DNA of 64,000 bases. Origin: Sphaerotilus microaerophilus (GTDB taxonomy: Bacteria > Pseudomonadota > Gammaproteobacteria > Burkholderiales > Burkholderiaceae_C). The translations under genes were made by a program, and so were the position numbers. Numbering within the stretch: the stretch's first letter is position 1; every line of letters begins with the position of its first letter. The DNA lies in the NCBI RefSeq assembly GCF_023734135.1, contig NZ_AP025730.1:2790001-2854000 (forward strand), given 5' to 3'. Below, piece after piece: positions 9,785 to 44,251 of this stretch. Below the pieces are notes generated by a model that saw nothing but the letters and a program-made list of their open reading frames with translations, was not told where the DNA came from and did not search any database.

Positions 9785-9832
9785 GGGCAGGCCGCTTCGT
9801 CCTGGGGGTTGGGGGGTAGGTGTGAAGACTCA

Positions 9833-10550
9833 TTAAGGTACATAAGCACTGATACGAAGCAATGAATAACCCTGGGTCTGAAGTTCTGCTTGCTGTTTGT
9901 CAAAGTCAGCCCGAGTCCAGCCCCATACCGTAGGTCTTTCCTCATTGTTCTTACACCAAATTGCGTTGAAATGTTCTCGACCATTTGGTAGAACAAAAGT
10001 ATTCAGTTCTTCAAGACGAAAACCTTGAGCCTGTAGTTCTTCCTGGTGTTTATCAAAATCATCCCGAGCCCAGCCCCATACCGCAGGTTTTTCCTCATTG
10101 CTCTTACACCAAATTGCATTGAAATGTTCGCGGCCATTTGGTAGAACAAAAGCATTCAGTTCTTCAAGACGAAAACCTTGAGCCTGTAGTTCTTCCTGGT
10201 GTTTATCAAAATCATTCCGAGCCCAGCCCCATACCGCGGGTCTTTCTTCGTTGTTTTTGCACCAAATTGCATTGAAATGTTCGCGGCCATTTGGTAGAAC
10301 AAAAGCATTCAGCTTCTTTAGACGGAAACCTTGAGTCTGTAGTTCATTTTGACGCTTATCGAAATCATCCCGAGCCCAGCCCCATACGGCAGACCTTTCC
10401 TCATCGTTCTTACACCAAATTGCATTGAACTGTTCACTACCATTTGGCAAAACAAAAGTATTCAGCTCGTCAAGAAGATAACCTTGTGACAGTAGTTTCT
10501 GTTGCTGCCGATCAAAGTCCTCTCTGGCTAAGCCCCATACGGCAGGTCTC
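9833..10550 (-). repeat. Tandem 153-bp coding repeats (51-residue units)
   Basis: Four near-identical units plus the end of a fifth lie here. The same landmark (ATTCAGTTCT and its variants, plus-strand sense) recurs at 10001, 10154 and 10307, a period of exactly 153 bases. Each unit encodes a variant of EHFNAIWCKNNEERPAVWGW followed by ARxDFDKxQxELQxQGFRLxxLNxFVLPNGR. The middle units are the most alike at DNA level, which suggests recent duplication or gene conversion. The first unit is split by the insertion sequence at 10556-11713 and resumes at 11714. Confidence 0.85.
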
Positions 10551-10555
10551 TTATT

Positions 10556-11713
10556 TAGGACTTACGCAGGGTCACTTCAGCTAGCGCAATGATTCGCCAT
10601 TTCGACTCAATATGTCAGATGGGTGCCATGCGAATGGTTGGTGACCGAAGTTCCTTCTTGAGGAATTCCGAGAGGATTCCCTTCTTCAGGCTGTAGATGT
10701 TTGTCTTCAGCGCTTTGGCCGTCTCGCAGAGGTGGACCCAGGCCAATATCGCGCAGGCGATGTGATTCTTCTGTGACCGGGCCATTCTGCACTGACATTT
10801 TTCGATGCCAAGAACCTGCTTGATCTCCCTGTGGTACTGCTCAATCTTCCAGCGCACGGCACACATCTCATGCGTATCGTCCGTCGAATCTTGAGATAGG
10901 TCGTTTGTCACAACCCAGTCCGTGCGATTGGTATCAACCACAACCCGGAACAGTTTCAGCTTGATGTCACTGGGAAACTTGAACAGTTTGACGTGTTTGC
11001 CATGCACATGTTCTTGGGCACTCCACTGCAGCGTACTGACCGCCTTGTAGGGCTGCTGGCCTTGGCTGTCGTCAACCTTGCGATTGCTCTTGAGCGGGCA
11101 GTAGAAGTGCTTGCCCGCCCGGTGGATGTGCTTCATCAGATCCATGGTGGCGTACCAGGAGTCCATCAGCACGGTGCGAAAGGGCAGCTTCTTGTGCGCC
11201 ATGGCATTGTCGAACATCTCCTGGACATGATCCAGCTTGGACTTGCCGTCTTCGTCAGGCGCATAGATGCGCCAGTCGATGATCCAGTAGTGGCCGGTCT
11301 TGATGTTCACGTACAGGCAGTTGACCACCCCAATGCCCTTGATCAGGCCGTGGGCGTTGCCGCTGTACTGTTTGCGCACCAGCTCGATTTTGTGCGAGTG
11401 GTTCTTGTCCAGAACGCTGTCATCGAAAACCAGGCAGGCATCGTCGTCAAATTCGATGTTTCGTCGGGCCAGATTCCAGACATCGGCCGGGCTGATATTG
11501 GCAGCCTGCAAGTAGCGATTTATGGCGTCATGAGAAAACCTCTGATGGTGATCCGCAAAATAGGTCTGCGTGTAGTTGATTTGTGTGGATATCAGAAATT
11601 GGCAGTAGTCTCGGCTCGTGGGTTTCATGGTGAATATATTATCACAAATACCACGAAATCGGCGCCGATATATTAAATAATCTAGTTTGATTTAAACGTT
11701 TGCGTAAGTCCTA
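10556..11713 (-). mobile_element. IS4/IS701-type insertion sequence, 1158 bp
   Basis: The ends are perfect 13-bp inverted repeats, TAGGACTTACGCA (10556-10568) and TGCGTAAGTCCTA (11701-11713). They are flanked by a 5-bp direct repeat TTATT at 10551-10555 and 11714-11718. The element holds one transposase gene, leftward. It sits inside the first repeat unit of the metalloprotease gene. The intact ends and perfect duplication point to a recent insertion. Family placement is inferred from the transposase; the 5-bp duplication would be unusual for IS701 proper (4 bp). Confidence 0.85.
10615..11628 (-). CDS. IS4/IS701-type DDE transposase
   Basis: 337 residues. A DDE nuclease core is visible: first Asp in CLVFDDSVLDKN (about 86-97), second Asp in RTVLMDSWYATMDLM, and Glu in the RWKIEQYHREIKQVLGIEKCQCR helix near 265. 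The SHKIELVRKQYSGNAHG segment is shared with IS701-like transposases. It fills most of the 1158-bp element and looks full length, so the element may be active. Confidence 0.88.
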   Translation of the reverse strand: MKPTSRDYCQFLISTQINYTQTYFADHHQRFSHDAINRYLQAANISPADVWNLARRNIEFDDDACLVFDDSVLDKNHSHKIELVRKQYSGNAHGLIKGIGVVNCLYVNIKTGHYWIIDWRIYAPDEDGKSKLDHVQEMFDNAMAHKKLPFRTVLMDSWYATMDLMKHIHRAGKHFYCPLKSNRKVDDSQGQQPYKAVSTLQWSAQEHVHGKHVKLFKFPSDIKLKLFRVVVDTNRTDWVVTNDLSQDSTDDTHEMCAVRWKIEQYHREIKQVLGIEKCQCRMARSQKNHIACAILAWVHLCETAKALKTNIYSLKKGILSEFLKKELRSPTIRMAPI

Positions 11714-11849
11714 TTATTGGTACTTTTGTGCCAAATGGCATTAAAGCGTTCGGATGTGTTCGCCATAACAGTGTGCTGGCGATTGCCTTCGCGAAGAGCA
11801 TTGCGCATCCGTCGCGCTTGGTCCGAAGAGAAGTGCTGATTAAAGTTTA

Positions 11850-12976
11850 TTAACCTGGCAATTAAATACAAATGTTAGTATAATGTTTGCATGAATAAGC
11901 CTACTGACGCCCGTTCACTTTCAGAAGAATCCCTGGAGTTGCTGCGCCGGCAGGCGCACCGACTGCGTCAGGACGGGCGGGTATGGTCCGAGATTGCCCA
12001 GATCGTTGGAGTCCACCAAAGCACGCTCATGAGTTGGGCACGGCGTTTCAATGTGGGCGGTGAAAAGGCGCCAACGAATGTGAGTTCGGCGCGGCGCGGG
12101 CGCCGTGTGGGTGAAAAGCGCACGATCAGCCTGCTCGATGAGATGGCCCTGCGCGATCAGATCGTCGGGGGCAATCCAGATCAGATGTCGTTGCCGTTCG
12201 CGTTGTGGACGCGCAAGGCGGTGCAGGAGGCCATCAAGCTCAAGTTGGGCATCGACATGCCCATTCGCACCGTGGGCGAGTATCTGCGGCGTTGGGGTTT
12301 CACGCCTCAGAGGCCCGCCAAACGGGCCGTCGAGCAGCGCAGCGAGCTGGTGCAGCAATGGATGCAGGTGGACTACCCCGCGCTGGTGCGTCGGGCCAAG
12401 GCTGAAGCAGGCGAGATCTACTGGGGCGATGAGACGGCCATCCGCCAGGACACCGCCTGGGTGCGCGGCTACGCCCCGGCCGGGCAGACCCCGGTGCTGC
12501 GGCATGCCGCGCGCTGGACCAGCATCACCATGATCTCGGCGCTGACCAACCAGGGACTGCTGAAGTTCGCCTTCCACGACGGCGCGATCAACCAGGATCG
12601 ATTCATCGAGTTCCTCGCTGCGCTCGTGGCCGACAGTGCCGGCAAGAAGGTCTTCCTGATCGTGGACAACCTTCGGGTTCACCGGGCCAAGGCCGTCACG
12701 CAATGGCTCGAAGGCAAGGAGAGGCAAATCGAGGTTCATTACTTGCCGCCGTACTCGCCCGAAGCCAATCCCGACGAGATCCTCAACCGCGACTTGAAGA
12801 CCGAGTTGCGCATGCGCCCGGCGGCCAAGGATTCCGATGAGCTCAAACGTATTGCTGCGGATTTCATGAAGACACTCGCTGAACTACCCGGAAAGATCAA
12901 ACGCTACTTCAGGAGCAAGACGGTTTCATATGCGAGCGTCGCCATGAACTGGTCTTATATTTAATTGCCGGGTTAA
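11850..12976 (+). mobile_element. IS630-family insertion sequence, 1127 bp
   Basis: The imperfect terminal inverted repeats begin TTAACC(T/C)GGCAATTAAATA, with about 20 of 23 positions matching between 11850-11872 and the complement of 12954-12976. TA dinucleotides at 11848-11849 and 12977-12978 are the target duplication expected for IS630/Tc1-type elements. The element lies inside the metalloprotease gene just after the Met-turn codons, in opposite orientation to that gene. Confidence 0.85.
11891..12964 (+). CDS. IS630-family transposase (first copy)
   Basis: 357 residues. An N-terminal helix-turn-helix (LRQDGRVWSEIAQIVGVHQSTLMSWARRF) is followed by a winged-helix segment (SLPFALWTRKAVQEAI, GEYLRRWGFTPQRP) and a DDE domain. 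The catalytic residues lie in WGDETAIRQD, FLIVDNLRVHRAK and PEANPDEILNRDLK (spacing D-x34-D/E type). Full length. The stop codon at 12962-12964 lies inside the right inverted repeat. It resembles the transposase at 14116-15153 but is clearly a different element. Confidence 0.93.
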   Translation: MNKPTDARSLSEESLELLRRQAHRLRQDGRVWSEIAQIVGVHQSTLMSWARRFNVGGEKAPTNVSSARRGRRVGEKRTISLLDEMALRDQIVGGNPDQMSLPFALWTRKAVQEAIKLKLGIDMPIRTVGEYLRRWGFTPQRPAKRAVEQRSELVQQWMQVDYPALVRRAKAEAGEIYWGDETAIRQDTAWVRGYAPAGQTPVLRHAARWTSITMISALTNQGLLKFAFHDGAINQDRFIEFLAALVADSAGKKVFLIVDNLRVHRAKAVTQWLEGKERQIEVHYLPPYSPEANPDEILNRDLKTELRMRPAAKDSDELKRIAADFMKTLAELPGKIKRYFRSKTVSYASVAMNWSYI

Positions 12977-14075
12977 TAAGCAACCTTTAAAGTAGCTCAT
13001 CACCAAACTTCGGTCCGGGCTATAGCTTACAATTGCTCCATTCTTCAGTGTCAAATTGACTTCACCTATGAGTCCACATCCGTCTCCACCATTGGCAACC
13101 CGATTGAGGTAATGCAGTAGTTCGCCGCTGTCATCCGGTGGCGTATCATGAACAACTGCTGTGTCAGCGTTAAGAATATTTAAGACATTTTCTAATGGGA
13201 TACCGTTTGCAAGTTCGTTATTGAGGACTTCTTTTACTCGCTGGGTTAGGAGTTCGACCTTCTGTTGATCCGTGAGACTTTGATTCCCATTCTCTGAGCT
13301 AGTAAGTGATATCTTGTAAAAGGGATGCCACAGATGCAAGTAGTGACCCACTTCGTGCGACAGAAATGTCGCATAGTCTTCGGTGGCGGCATTTGTGGTA
13401 CCGACATAGGCGGATAATTTCACAAAACTTAAATCCTCCCAGGAGAATCCTCCTCCAGAAGGGTTGGATATTATCCAGTGCTGTTTATTCTCATCAAAAA
13501 ATCTGCTGGTTCCTTCTGCAAACAATAGAACCATCTTTCCAACATAATTGTTGGCCACTTCATTCCGATGGGCTATCGTAGAATTTGCATTACAAATTTC
13601 ATCAATTTCGGCTTCGGTGAGAGGAGGGTTCTGTGTTAGTTTCCATTGTTCCGAAGGTGGAATAATGAAATCTTGATTCAATTGTGTGTCGTTGCGAATT
13701 TCAAGATCGGCAGTGGCATTAAAAAATAGTTTAATGCCTGTTCCTTCAAAGATCTCGTTCGTATGAAAGATGACTCTGGAAATCGCTTCTCCCAGTTCCG
13801 GATAAGCCTGCCCTGTGTGCCCGCTTGAGAGGAGGCCATTATCATTGCGGCAGGCAATAGCTTGAACGTGAACTCGTAGCGGGGGAGCAGGTTGGTCTCG
13901 ACCGTTTTCGGCATACGCGGAATCTGATTCAATCATCCGTCGTGCGCTGCGTAACGGACGGTTGGAGTCAGTTCTAGCGACGACTCTCAACGCAGTACGT
14001 TGCTCGTCGGTCAGTGTTATATATTCCACCCAAGGGTCACGACTGTCATCAGCATAGGTAGGCGCCCCCAAGCTA

Positions 14076-15179
14076 TTAGTTCGGCAACTCTATAGAGCGT
14101 GTTATTATATTTATCATGAAACCCCAAGACGCACGCAGTATTTCACCCGACGCCCAGCGTGAAAAGCGCACCGTTGCACTCAACATGCGGACGCAGGGAT
14201 ACACTTTCGTCGAGATAGGGCATGCCGTTGGAGTTCACTCTCGAACGGTGCAGAAATGGTTGGCGCGAGCCGAGATGGACGGGACGGATGCGGCCATCGA
14301 CGGCAAGCCACGGGGTTATGCGGTGGGCGAGCACCGGCAATTGACTCAAGAGCAGGAATCGCAGATTCGCTCGTACATCACCGATCGAATGCCCGATCAG
14401 TTGAAGATGCCCTACGCCCTGTGGACGCGCAAGGCAGTGCGCGACCTGATTCAGGACGTCACCGGCGTGACCATGCCCATTCGCACCGTTGGCCTGTACC
14501 TCAGCCGCTGGGGCTACACGCCGCAGCGCCCGCTCAAACGCGCCTACGAACAACGCCCCGCGGAGGTGCAGAAGTGGCTGGAGGTGAGCTACCCGGAAAT
14601 ACAGCAGCGCGCCACGAAGGAAGAGGCGGAGATCTTCTGGGGCGACGAGACTGGCGTGAACTCGCGCAGCCAGCAAGGGCGCAGCTACGCGCCGGTGGGC
14701 AAGACCCCAGCGGTGGCGCTGACCGCCAAGCGCTTTGGCATCAACATGATCAGCGCATTCTCCAACCGTGGCGAGTTGCATTTCATGCTCTACCGCGAAA
14801 CCTTCGATGCAGCCAAATGCACCGAATTCCTTGGGCGCTTGACGCGCTGCAGTACCAAGAAAATCTTCCTCATTTTGGACAACTTGAAGGTGCATCACGC
14901 CAAGGATGTCAAGGAATGGGTCGAGGACAACAAGGACAAGATCGAGTTGTTCTTCCTGCCATCGTATTCACCCGAACTCAATCCGGACGAGTATTTGAAC
15001 GGCGACCTGAAGAACCGGATTGCAGAGAAACCTCAGGCAAGAAACAAAGAAACGCTGGAAAGCAATGTAAAGAGCATCATGACCGACCTTGCGGCCAAAC
15101 CAGTTCACATTCGTTCATACTTCAGACATCCGAAGATCCGCTACGCGGCTTGATGCGCCCTGTAGAGTTACCGGATTAA
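14076..15179 (+). mobile_element. IS630-family insertion sequence, 1104 bp (second, distinct)
   Basis: The terminal inverted repeats start TTA(G/A)T(T/C)CGG(C/T)AACTCTA, with about 19 of 24 positions matching between 14076-14099 and the complement of 15156-15179. TA duplications are at 14074-14075 and 15180-15181. This element interrupts the metalloprotease gene near its 5' end, after 36 codons. Its ends differ from those of the IS630 element at 11850-12976, so the two are independent insertions rather than copies of one element. Confidence 0.85.
14116..15153 (+). CDS. IS630-family transposase (second copy)
   Basis: 345 residues with the same plan as the transposase at 11891-12964. The helix-turn-helix is MRTQGYTFVEIGHAVGVHSR, the linker MPYALWTRKAVRDLI, and the conserved VGLYLSRWGYTPQRPLKRAYEQRP. 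The DDE residues lie in WGDETGVNSR, FLILDNLKVHHAK and PELNPDEYLNGDLK. Complete, with no frameshift, so probably functional. Confidence 0.93.
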   Translation: MKPQDARSISPDAQREKRTVALNMRTQGYTFVEIGHAVGVHSRTVQKWLARAEMDGTDAAIDGKPRGYAVGEHRQLTQEQESQIRSYITDRMPDQLKMPYALWTRKAVRDLIQDVTGVTMPIRTVGLYLSRWGYTPQRPLKRAYEQRPAEVQKWLEVSYPEIQQRATKEEAEIFWGDETGVNSRSQQGRSYAPVGKTPAVALTAKRFGINMISAFSNRGELHFMLYRETFDAAKCTEFLGRLTRCSTKKIFLILDNLKVHHAKDVKEWVEDNKDKIELFFLPSYSPELNPDEYLNGDLKNRIAEKPQARNKETLESNVKSIMTDLAAKPVHIRSYFRHPKIRYAA

Positions 15180-15305
15180 TAGGTCGCGATGGAAGAAGTC
15201 GCAGAACATCAATCAACTGCGACTTCGTAATTTCGCCGTGTAACTTCTTTTGAGTCATGATTTTACGGATTTGATCAAATCGATTCATGGGTTTCTCCAA
15301 TGGAT

Positions 15306-15322
15306 GATAAGGCTAACTTATC
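15306..15322 (-). promoter_or_regulatory. Small inverted repeat just upstream of the metalloprotease start
   Basis: GATAAG (15306-15311) and CTTATC (15317-15322) form a 6-bp inverted repeat with a 5-base spacer. It is 18 bases upstream of the ATG at 15288, close enough to be an operator or a 5'-UTR hairpin. No protein is known to bind it. Confidence 0.35.
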
Positions 15323-15367
15323 GTAAAGATGCTGAAGGCTGCGGATTGCGGAAACTACGTAACGCCG

Positions 15368-16825
15368 TCACGTGCCAAACGTAATGTCGACCGCGACAAG
15401 ATGGCTGTACACGCCATTCGAGAGGTCGGCCGCCAATATGAAACAATCCGAGTATCTATCGTTGTCCTTCTTCTCTCCGAACTTCGGATTCACTGTCGAG
15501 TAGTGCGTACCGTCCCAAGATCCTCTGATGGGGCCACAGCCAGCCAGGGTCGTGTAGGTGACGTTGGGTTCGAGTGAGAACGGCAGCGGGAGCTCTGCAG
15601 ACGTTGAGCTGGCAAAGTTCCACGGGAGGTGCATATGCATTACTCGAATGACCCGTCCGCTGTGGAAGTGGCGCGTGGCCTGCCAGGATCGGCCATCGGC
15701 GGCATACTCAAAGGTTGGTGCGCCGAGTGGTCTGCCGTACCGACTTGGCCAGTCGTGCCACGGCTTGGCTGCATCCTCCAAGTCGTCGGAGGTTGCGACG
15801 AAGAGTGCGTCGCCCTGGTTTCGCAGGACCATTGCCAGCGCTGCTGCCCACAGGGCACCGGACAGGCTATCGTAGTTGTGCGGATAGGGTGCAATGACCA
15901 CCAAAGCGTCGACGTCGAGGATGCTGCGGAGTGTGTCGAATTCATCTTTGCTCAGGTTCCCAGGCCCACTTTCCTCGTCTCTGTAGCGGAAAGGGGCTTC
16001 GAGATAAATGCCGCTGTGGCGGGTCATACTTTCGAGAAAGCTTTCGCGCAAACCATGTAATTGCGCGGGGTCGTTGGAGTAGTTACTCCAGTATGGGATC
16101 GTGCCGAGGTTGAAGACGGACCCGATGCTCACTTCCTGCAATCGTGTCGAGATCGCCGTCATGTGGGCAATGAAGGCTTGGCAGAACCCCACGTCGAGGG
16201 CTGAACCGGGTTCTGGCAGCGATAGGCGGTGCATGTTGTCGAAGAACACAAAGTCGGTGTGCCCCGTTGCAGCCTCGACCAACAGCTGATCCTGATATCG
16301 AGTGATGTCCCGTGAGTCTGTCGGGTTGACGTACCATCGTCCACATTTACAGTCCGCGTCGAGCAGGTCGTCCTTTCCGGGAGGTGAATGAAGCCCACCC
16401 TGCCCCAATGGTGCGATGTCGTGACAGTCGATCGTGTCGCGTGGATAGAGAACCGTAGCCGTGTTGCGGCAGTTCGAGCCGGTCAGGTATCGCCCGATCA
16501 GTTGGTGCGGTGATGTCCGGTGGAGCAGGCGACGGAAGTTCCAGTAGGTGCTCTGTTGGTTGTAGAACGTGAAGAAGTCCGGAGAGTGACTGGCGATGAG
16601 AGCCTTGTCTTCGCTGGTGAGGGAGTGTGGGTAAATTCCCTCGGGACCGATTTCTGCCAGCACCTCGTCCGAACTTGGTGTTTGGACAGGACAGGTGTAG
16701 AACTCCAAAACAATCGGCATCTTCGCGATGTTCTGGAAGGTCGTCTGCTTTATTGCCGCAGACATGAAGCGCGATTGCGTCGTGTCCAAGCGGTGGTCGG
16801 ACGAGGGCCAATACTTTCGTTGCAT
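15368..16825 (-). CDS. Unknown protein, possible glycoside-hydrolase-like TIM barrel
   Basis: 485 residues from the ATG at 16825, which follows a GGAAGTGAG-type ribosome-binding site; an upstream ATG at 16924 would add an unlikely basic leader. I do not recognise it with certainty. Features resembling hypothetical glycosyl hydrolases of the GHL15 type are GRYLTG, WYVNPTDSRDITRYQDQLL, TDFVFFDNMHRL (a possible strand-end Asp), and near the end PSRYGRPLGAP with RHFHSGRVIRV. There is no signal peptide. Cysteines are fairly frequent, with a CKCG cluster near residue 190. It is less GC-rich than core genes. It is leftward, 79 bp upstream of the broken metalloprotease gene, so the two may have formed an operon. 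The LuxR gene is divergent. Confidence 0.6.
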   Translation of the reverse strand: MQRKYWPSSDHRLDTTQSRFMSAAIKQTTFQNIAKMPIVLEFYTCPVQTPSSDEVLAEIGPEGIYPHSLTSEDKALIASHSPDFFTFYNQQSTYWNFRRLLHRTSPHQLIGRYLTGSNCRNTATVLYPRDTIDCHDIAPLGQGGLHSPPGKDDLLDADCKCGRWYVNPTDSRDITRYQDQLLVEAATGHTDFVFFDNMHRLSLPEPGSALDVGFCQAFIAHMTAISTRLQEVSIGSVFNLGTIPYWSNYSNDPAQLHGLRESFLESMTRHSGIYLEAPFRYRDEESGPGNLSKDEFDTLRSILDVDALVVIAPYPHNYDSLSGALWAAALAMVLRNQGDALFVATSDDLEDAAKPWHDWPSRYGRPLGAPTFEYAADGRSWQATRHFHSGRVIRVMHMHLPWNFASSTSAELPLPFSLEPNVTYTTLAGCGPIRGSWDGTHYSTVNPKFGEKKDNDRYSDCFILAADLSNGVYSHLVAVDITFGT

Positions 16826-16950
16826 GATGACGCTCACTTCCCGTGTCTTCCTAGGATGATGCTGGCAGGCGCTCGGTCTGTGCCGTGAGGCCTTTCGTGG
16901 GGTCATGCCGAGCCGACAAGGCAATGCTAGGTGCAGGGGATTCTTGGAAA

Positions 16951-16968
16951 TACCTCCGGTCGGAGGTA
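16951..16968. promoter_or_regulatory. 18-bp palindrome between the glycosidase-like and luxR genes, candidate operator
   Basis: TACCTCCGGTCGGAGGTA is an inverted repeat with 8-bp perfect arms and a 2-base centre. It lies 82 bases before the regulator start and 125 bases before the leftward gene start. The ACCT/AGGT outer bases are like the 18-20-bp dyads bound by LuxR-type dimers. Binding is inferred, not shown. Confidence 0.5.
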
Positions 16969-17050
16969 AAAGAAGAACTGGATGTCTTGGTCAACGGGGC
17001 ATCCAATGCTCGTGAACCACAGATGTTACAAAGTGAGTCAGGGGTAACAA

Positions 17051-18139
17051 ATGAATTCATCGACCCGTGCCAAGGCCCGCTTTCGCCAGATCTGCACCCT
17101 TGGCCCAGGAGGGCTTGGCTGTATTCCCGATCTTCTGGCGGCGGTACGGGATGTGGTTCCATCCGGTCCGAATGCTTTTCTGGTGGTGGATCAGGACCAG
17201 CGTTGTGAATACCTGACCGTTGAGGACTGTCCCGACTCGGTGATGGAGACCTTCCGTTCCGAGTTCGGTGGGGCGATGCAGCCGGATATCGACAACATCA
17301 CGCGTTTCTTTGCTTTGTGTCAAACCGGTGCGTATTTTGGCTTCGAGGAACGGGCGTCGCCCGGTTTCTATGGGCGGGGGCTCTACCACGAGGCGTGGCG
17401 ACCGTTGGGGCAGCACCACTCGATGGCGGGCGTGGTGCAACTCGATGGGCGCCTGCGTGGGTTGATGCAGTTGTATCGCGGCAGCAAGGAGCCTGCCTTC
17501 TCTGGGCAAGAAGCGAGAGAACTCGGTTGGCTGCTGCCTTTTGTTCCGCGTGTATTGCAGGCCTCACTGAGCCAAGGGCTGCTGCGCGTGGCGGTCACTA
17601 GAACTGGATTTGTCTTGCTGGATCGGTCCGGCCGGGTTTCGCATGCTTGCGAGAACAGCAAGCGAATGCTCGGCAACCTGCGTCTCGAGTATTCCTGGAA
17701 CAACCGTCAGGTGGAGATCGACAACGGGTTGGCGGATCTGGCGACGCGATTGGAGCGGATCGCGGACGGAAGGCCTGCATCGCCTCCGGAAGTCCGCTTT
17801 GGCTACTCAGGGGGAGAGGTCCGGTTTCGTGCACACGGTCTGCAGCAGGCGTTGGAGGGGGCAGAGCACGTCATTCTGGCAACCGTCGAGCAGCGCGAAT
17901 GGGACTCGCTGTGCCTCCTGCGGGGATTGCGGACGCTGCCGCTGTCGTCACGGGAAAGTGATGTGTGCTTCTGGCTTTCGCAGGGAATGACGACGGCGCT
18001 CGTCGCCGATCGAATGGGATTGAAGCCCAGTACGGTCAAGGCCTATGCGGACTCGGTGTACGCGAAGCTGGGCGTCTCCAGTCGAGAGGACTTGAGGGCA
18101 AGAATCATGTCGGGATCCTTGGGTGATGGACCCTCTTGA
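17051..18139 (+). CDS. LuxR-family transcriptional regulator
   Basis: 362 residues. The last 70 residues are a clear LuxR-type helix-turn-helix: LPLSSRESDVCFWLSQGMTT, then VADRMGLKPSTVKAYADSVYAKLGVSSRED, including the recognition helix. The N-terminal 280 residues have no response-regulator receiver Asp pocket and do not look like an autoinducer-binding domain. They could hold GAF/PAS-like folds (VVQLDGRLRGLMQLYRGS, GFVLLDRSGRVSHACENSKRML). This suggests a ligand- or cofactor-sensing orphan regulator; the signal is unknown. It is divergent from the glycosidase-like gene across a 225-bp region holding the 18-bp palindrome, and convergent with hoxW. Confidence 0.85.
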   Translation: MNSSTRAKARFRQICTLGPGGLGCIPDLLAAVRDVVPSGPNAFLVVDQDQRCEYLTVEDCPDSVMETFRSEFGGAMQPDIDNITRFFALCQTGAYFGFEERASPGFYGRGLYHEAWRPLGQHHSMAGVVQLDGRLRGLMQLYRGSKEPAFSGQEARELGWLLPFVPRVLQASLSQGLLRVAVTRTGFVLLDRSGRVSHACENSKRMLGNLRLEYSWNNRQVEIDNGLADLATRLERIADGRPASPPEVRFGYSGGEVRFRAHGLQQALEGAEHVILATVEQREWDSLCLLRGLRTLPLSSRESDVCFWLSQGMTTALVADRMGLKPSTVKAYADSVYAKLGVSSREDLRARIMSGSLGDGPS

Positions 18140-18231
18140 TCTGCCAGTTGTCTTTGGTAAACAGAAGTCCGGTCGCTGTCATGCGCCGGAGCTGTGCGTG
18201 GATGCGCTGCGGGCGTTCCTGGGTGGGCTCG

Positions 18232-18822
18232 TCAGTCCCGGCCATCGGGGTTGGATGCGTTCCCCATCTCACCGCCGTACGAGTGACGGACGTTGCCCTC
18301 AAGTGGACGGGCACCATCTCTCTGCAACTTCTGCCGCCACTTCCCTGCATCCGCCTTGCTACACAACTCCCTCACCAGCCCCTTCGCCACCTCCAGCCGC
18401 TCGCAGGCCACCGCGCTCATCGGCTCGCCCAGCCCGAACTGCTCGCCGCGTACGCAGAGAACGAAGGCCGGTGGTGGCTCCTGGCCGTGGATCTGGCGGT
18501 AGACCGACAGTACTGCCTCGGGCAGCAGGGCGTGGGTGGAGGCAGTGAAGACGCCGGCCGGTTGCGCTTCGTAGAAGACGTAGGGTGCGGCGGTTTGGGT
18601 GCCGGCGTCGAGAAAGAGAACCAGATCCGCACCGACCATGTCCAGGGCGTGTTCGATCTGGAGCTGGAAGTCCTCGATCGTCTCGACGCCAGGCAGATGC
18701 GCGGCCTCCAGGTCGGCCAGCAGCAGCGGGCCGATGGCGTCGTCGCCGCGGCTGGTGTTGCCCCAGCCGAAGACCACCACTTTCGCGGCGACCTTTGGGG
18801 CGTGGGTTTCGGCTCCGCTCAA
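18232..18822 (-). CDS. hoxW: Hydrogenase maturation endopeptidase HoxW
   Basis: 196 residues of the HyaD/HybD peptidase family. GWGNTSRGDDAIGP near the N-terminus holds the first nickel-binding acidic residue (Asp of GDDA), and LFLDAGTQ holds the second region. The family removes the C-terminal peptide of a [NiFe]-hydrogenase large subunit after nickel insertion. The target here is HoxH: the two genes overlap by four bases (18819-18822). The last 40 residues are polar and less family-like. Last gene of the hox operon. Confidence 0.9.
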   Translation of the reverse strand: MSGAETHAPKVAAKVVVFGWGNTSRGDDAIGPLLLADLEAAHLPGVETIEDFQLQIEHALDMVGADLVLFLDAGTQTAAPYVFYEAQPAGVFTASTHALLPEAVLSVYRQIHGQEPPPAFVLCVRGEQFGLGEPMSAVACERLEVAKGLVRELCSKADAGKWRQKLQRDGARPLEGNVRHSYGGEMGNASNPDGRD

Positions 18823-43923: not shown

Positions 43924-43999
43924 GGGTTGTTAGCTCAGTCGGTAGAGCAGCGGACTTTTAATCCGTTGGTCGCAGGTTCAAGTCCTGCACAACCCACCA
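43924..43999 (+). tRNA. tRNA-Lys (anticodon TTT)
   Basis: 76 nt including encoded CCA. The acceptor stem GGGTTGT/ACAACCC pairs fully. The D loop AGCTCAGTCGGTAGAGC, anticodon loop CTTTTAA and T arm GCAGGTTCAAGTCCTGC are all standard. Confidence 0.97.
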
Positions 44000-44025
44000 A
44001 AACTCTGCTACAATGGCAGGCTGTC

Positions 44026-44101
44026 GGGCTCTTAGCTCAGTTGGTAGAGCAGCGGACTCTTAATCCGTTGGTCGAGTGTTCGAGTCACTCAGGGCCCACC
44101 A
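44026..44101 (+). tRNA. tRNA-Lys (anticodon CTT), copy 1
   Basis: 76 nt including encoded CCA. The acceptor GGGCTCT/AGGGCCC pairs with one G-U. The anticodon loop CTCTTAA gives CTT, reading AAG. The anticodon stem is identical to that of the TTT isoacceptor 26 bases upstream. Confidence 0.97.
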
Positions 44102-44175
44102 AATCCGACATTGTTTGCCGCCATGCGGCGGGCAATTCAAATCAGCATGGATGACATGCTGACCGTATCAGAAAC

Positions 44176-44251
44176 GGGCTCTTAGCTCAGTTGGTAGAGC
44201 AGCGGACTCTTAATCCGTTGGTCGAGTGTTCGAGTCACTCAGGGCCCACCA
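44176..44251 (+). tRNA. tRNA-Lys (anticodon CTT), copy 2
   Basis: Base-for-base identical to the tRNA at 44026-44101 and spaced from it by 74 bases of unrelated sequence. Probably a local gene duplication that raises supply for AAG, the favoured Lys codon in this GC-rich DNA. Confidence 0.97.

What the first reader, a model, noticed from the sequence alone, without database searches (positions are those of the whole stretch)
9833..15288. One gene hit by three different insertion sequences, and its original frame is fully recoverable
Seen in sequence: removing 14076-15179, 11850-12976 and 10556-11713, each with one copy of its TA, TA and TTATT duplication, leaves 2058 bases, exactly 686 codons, with no stop. 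All three junctions keep frame and rebuild motifs (FKGCL-NFNQH after the Met-turn; KSTN-KRPAV inside a repeat). No other lesion is present, so inactivation looks recent. Three independent hits in one 2-kb gene suggest that loss was selected, or that this AT-rich patch attracts elements.
Basis: seen in the sequence. Interest (0 to 1): 0.8.

Follow-up and report, generated by a model that had tools for sequence, protein, structure and literature searches.

The report
Foreign protease gene broken by transposons
A protease gene that this bacterium seems to have picked up from elsewhere has been cut into four by three jumping elements, most likely because those elements favour AT-rich DNA and not because losing the gene was useful.

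The parts
15182..15288 (-). gene piece 1 (start codon at 15288; first 35 codons plus 2 bases)
   Evidence: aligns alone to residues 1-35 of P0011, 62.9% identical
14076..15179 (+). IS630-family element A, transposase 14116-15153
   Evidence: NF033545 227.3 bits, cut-off 100; TA on both sides; 100% copy at 649093 and a copy with 6 mismatches at 646037
12979..14075 (-). gene piece 2: metzincin-like protease domain with HEVGHYLHLWH and the Met-turn MSYFKGC
   Evidence: aligns alone to residues 37-404 of P0011, 68.5% identical; PF05572 21.6 bits, under its cut-off of 23
11850..12976 (+). IS630-family element B, transposase 11891-12964
   Evidence: NF033545 218.8 bits; TA on both sides; two further uninterrupted copies with 10 and 18 mismatches and one interrupted copy
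11719..11849 (-). gene piece 3: last helix of the protease domain and start of repeat 1
   Evidence: aligns alone to residues 406-448 of P0011, 81% identical
10556..11713 (-). IS701-type element C, transposase 10615-11628
   Evidence: NF049921 392.3 bits, cut-off 250; TTATT on both sides; 27 full-length copies, this one included, at 100%
9833..10555 (-). gene piece 4: rest of repeat 1 and repeats 2-5, stop at 9833-9835
   Evidence: PF17660 87.2 bits, cut-off 23 (on 9833-10450); aligns alone to residues 449-691 of P0011; 153-base unit; FNAIW once in piece 3 and four times in piece 4
15368..16924 (-). ORF directly upstream on the same strand (518 aa from a TTG), no family known
   Evidence: no Pfam or NCBIfam match; only itself in the protein search
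9785..18352 (.). stretch missing from the nearest congener G012, which has 280 other bases there
   Evidence: G012 matches up to 9784 and again from 18353; its spacer is 70% GC

Best explanation
A horizontally acquired, AT-rich gene for a metzincin-like protease with a five-repeat C-terminal barrel sits next to the urea/branched-chain-type transporter genes of a GC-rich bacterium. Mobile elements of this genome that favour AT-rich targets struck it three times, each by simple insertion with target duplication. The first break in reading order lies after codon 35, so no full-length protein can be made; the two others part the last helix of the protease domain and the repeat barrel from the catalytic residues. 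The triple hit follows from target preference plus a gene that could be lost without visible cost. Shown: insertions, duplications, frame, intact relatives, AT bias of the elements. Inferred: horizontal origin, dispensability, loss of activity.
For: Ends and duplications. Pieces collinear with intact P0011. GC 0.455 against 0.689, and third-position GC 0.36-0.43 against 0.94 in the neighbouring transporter gene. No match in 59 of 59 relatives or in 368 of 368 other genomes of the class. IS701-type sites: 18 of 20 usable under 60% GC against 10 of 394 background windows, Mann-Whitney p 8e-13; 9 of 9 IS630 copies outside the eight-copy subgroup are also under 60%. Sites scoring as well as the one hit are 7.8 times commoner per base in this gene than in the background. 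Two further clusters of three elements elsewhere.
Against: The AT bias may be partly survival of insertions in dispensable DNA and not targeting alone; the sharper AT signal at the 9-base site points to targeting but does not exclude both. One IS630 subgroup of eight copies is not AT-biased (1 of 8 under 60%). The expected number of triple-hit stretches is a rough model whose element counts I set by hand. Donor not identified. No empty-site allele of this gene was seen.
Confidence: 0.85

Rival explanations
1. Loss of the protease was selected, and three independent insertions are repeated loss-of-function events.
For: Three hits in 2 kb; under uniform landing of 50 elements, at least one group of three or more is expected in 8.3% of trials.
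Against: After the first break later ones bring no further gain in the same lineage. Landing is not uniform, and two other groups of three exist; under uniform landing two or more groups occur in 0.3% of trials, so clustering is a property of the elements. No population data.
Confidence: 0.06
2. Piece 2 is still expressed from the element beside it and works as a shortened protease.
For: It has an open frame of 381 codons from a TTG at 14071 and keeps the zinc-binding and Met-turn motifs; a 336-residue version is a database protein (P0001).
Against: It lacks Q415, M419, R420, A422 and R428 of P0011, which are invariant among 14 relatives, and all repeats. No promoter was tested.
Confidence: 0.07
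3. The three insertions are an assembly or joining artefact.
For: Repeated elements can cause misjoins; 27 identical copies of one of them exist.
Against: All three elements have matching duplications on both sides and the flanking pieces are collinear on an intact relative; the chromosome is a single contig of 6,027,181 bases.
Confidence: 0.02

Closest known systems
IS630-family insertion sequences
   Same: DDE_3 transposase over the NCBIfam cut-off and TA duplication
   Different: nothing that I found
IS701-family insertion sequences (NCBIfam NF049921)
   Same: transposase well over the model's cut-off
   Different: 5-base duplication in 27 of 27 copies; the review PMC2266710 (passages seen) gives exactly four bases for almost all IS701 elements
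Pappalysin-type metzincins, peptidase family M43 (PAPP-A, mirolysin)
Fungal polyglycine hydrolases (7tpu), repeat PF17660
   Different: barrel at the C end, with a metalloprotease in place of the beta-lactamase-like serine protease domain

Membership tests
IS630 family (elements A and B) | IS630-type DDE transposase | tested here: met
   NF033545 227.3 and 218.8 bits, cut-off 100
IS630 family (elements A and B) | insertion at TA with TA duplication | tested here: met
   also TA beside the other four copies read (two of A, two of B)
IS701 family (element C) | IS701 transposase model | tested here: met
   NF049921 392.3 bits, cut-off 250; the other IS701 models NF033540 and NF049999 are under their cut-offs
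IS701 family (element C) | 4-base target duplication | tested here: not met
   5 bases in 27 of 27 copies; four bases given for almost all members in PMC2266710; so only 'IS701-type by NCBI's model'
Peptidase family M43 | Pfam PF05572 over its cut-off | tested here: not met
   21.6 bits against 23 for the window's ORF 12926-14071; 15.3 for each of P0002, P0003 and P0005, no M43 match for P0006 and P0010
Peptidase family M43 | metzincin zinc motif HExxHxxGxxH/D (recalled) and Met-turn | tested here: inconclusive
   HEVGHYLHLWH has histidine at the glycine; Met-turn MSY is invariant in 14 of 14 relatives and present in piece 2
Polyglycine hydrolase | repeat domain PF17660 in five copies | tested here: met
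   87.2 bits, cut-off 23; five units
Polyglycine hydrolase | beta-lactamase-like serine protease domain | tested here: not met
   Pfam finds none in the window's pieces or in P0002, P0003, P0005, P0006, P0010; the other domain of the modelled relative matches metzincins

The most novel reading that the evidence does not exclude
The five-repeat barrel is a general targeting module that bacteria fuse to catalytic domains of unrelated kinds: besides this metzincin-like protease, proteins with the repeat carry C1A cysteine, S8 subtilisin, S1/V8-like and M10 domains in the precomputed annotation (nine sequences read). The fungal polyglycine hydrolase would then be one case of a wider protease-plus-barrel plan, and the barrel, whose function is unknown in print as far as PMC9912923 (passages) says, would be the part that finds the substrate.
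Probability: 0.4. Interest if true: 0.5.

Novelty: new member of a known kind. Interest (0 to 1): 0.25.

Why it matters
As a case of gene decay it is ordinary, but clean: each break is exact and an intact relative shows all three junctions. It is also a warning that several insertions in one gene need not mean selection when elements favour AT-rich, recently acquired DNA. The protein family behind it may say what the repeat barrel of polyglycine hydrolases is for.

Tried and rejected
Rejected: selected loss (clustering recurs elsewhere); phage or plasmid carriage of the gene (no match to P0011 in the phages or plasmids collections at E 1e-5; none in viral contigs); a solved close relative by sequence (none at E 0.01 for the profile A1; for P0003 one match at E 1, taken as chance).

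Led nowhere: naming the host. The second contig resembles IncP-type plasmids in several genera, and the IS701-type element has no near match in plasmids. The 4,909,403-base contig of congener G010 agrees in length, by my recall, with Leptothrix cholodnii SP-6, so I take the host to be of the Leptothrix/Sphaerotilus group; no call names it. Paper searches for such a genome with element counts gave listings only; passages of PMC6856280 describe a different strain. The search on AT-rich islands with IS630 listed one paper, not read. Locus L104 was fetched and not used.

Rows dropped before counts: of 27 full IS701-type copies, 20 were used for flank GC (dropped: three nested in the same element, one nested in an IS630 copy, the window's own, and two neighbours that lie in each other's flanks). 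Background: 394 of 400 one-kb windows from 20 evenly placed 20-kb stretches (six with sequence of the three elements dropped). Of 20 IS630 places, 17 had flanks measured, where neighbouring elements in the flanks were not masked. The target matrix left out the gene's own site and one of two possibly duplicated nested copies; only 8 of 27 sites carry both favoured letters, 11 carry one and 8 neither. One search scored 40 of 67 candidates, so 27 is a lower bound. One search scored only the 8000 candidates sharing most words.

Full report
Observation. The window holds, on the minus strand from 15288 down to 9833, four coding stretches parted by three insertion sequences. Counting each duplication once, the stretches have 107, 1097, 131 and 723 bases: 2058 in all, 686 codons with the stop, in one phase. 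Each stretch translated alone is free of stops.

Test against an intact relative. A protein search with the second piece, then with one of its relatives, found full-length proteins such as P0011 (692 aa), P0012 (705) and P0013 (710). Each window piece was aligned alone. On P0011 they cover 1-35, 37-404, 406-448 and 449-691, with 62.9%, 68.5%, 81.4% and about 74% identity, nothing missing but the two split codons. Of 29 residues invariant in the 14 relatives aligned, 28 are kept; aspartate 341 is asparagine. Of 40 nearly invariant ones 35 are kept, one of the five others being a split codon.

Where it comes from. The pieces have 45.5% GC in a genome of 68.9%, and third-position GC of 0.36 and 0.43 in pieces 4 and 2, against 0.94 in the transporter gene next door. 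No match was found in 59 of 59 relatives, 12 of them congeners, some of these incomplete, nor in 368 of 368 other genomes of the class. The nearest congener, G012, matches the window up to 9784 and again from 18353, with 280 unrelated bases between. Named relatives in genome contigs are few and distant: 8 loci, the best 53% identical in an Acidobacteria MAG. A horizontal origin is the simplest reading; the donor is unknown.

Why three hits. Element C has at least 27 full-length identical copies, all with 5-base duplications. Of 20 usable sites, 18 lie in 1 kb of flank under 60% GC; of 394 background windows, 10 do (p 8e-13). Its sites share a weak symmetrical pattern (C before and G after an AT-rich core, both in 8 of 27, one in 11, neither in 8), and sites scoring as well as the one used here are 7.8 times commoner per base in this gene than in the genome. 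The element has also hit itself at the same five bases in three places, in two relative orientations. The IS630 copies are AT-biased in 9 of 9 outside one subgroup; that subgroup of eight is not (1 of 8). Counting 50 elements, three groups of three or more exist, this one among them; uniform landing gives 0.086 such groups on average, and two or more in 0.3% of trials. If landings are confined to AT-rich DNA, 0.56-0.98 stretches of 2058 bases with three hits are expected (a rough model with counts set by hand). So the triple hit does not need selection.

How recent. Element C is identical to 26 other full copies and element A to one; element B differs from its two uninterrupted kin by 10 and 18 of 1127 bases. 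The open frame alone bounds random decay at about 68 substitutions, 3.3%. Recent, but not precisely datable. The order of the three insertions is not known.

Verdict. The thing is a recently broken acquired gene, a common kind of debris. The wider family, a barrel shared by proteases of several kinds, is the part worth following.

Noticed in passing
G000:C1 1156944-1159264, 3186523-3188843, 4010565-4012885: The IS701-type element has inserted into itself at the same five bases (403-407) in three places, twice in opposite and once in the same relative orientation.
   Followed up: partly
G000:C1 645-651 kb (L039): Three IS630 elements lie within about 4.2 kb, two copies of element A with a third kind between.
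   Followed up: partly
window 10556-11713: An element named IS701 by NCBI's model makes 5-base duplications in 27 of 27 copies, where four are described for almost all of the family.
   Followed up: partly
window 15368-16924: A 518-codon ORF upstream of the broken gene on the same strand has no known family and finds only itself.
   Followed up: partly
P0015, P0021, P0030, P0039 and others: The same repeat barrel is annotated beside C1A, S8, S1/V8-like and M10 protease domains, and beside non-protease domains.
   Followed up: partly
P0014, P0017, P0022: Some relatives carry cysteine-rich repeats (WRWCKKCQGLFF-like) set into the protease domain before the zinc motif.
   Followed up: no
L041 (second contig of the genome): A 30.8-kb plasmid whose first 12.6 kb hold stretches identical to a plasmid of Aminobacter sp. 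MSH1 (100% over 63% of the 20-kb query).
   Followed up: no
window 43924-44251: Three tRNA-Lys genes in a row, one with anticodon ttt and two with ctt.
   Followed up: no
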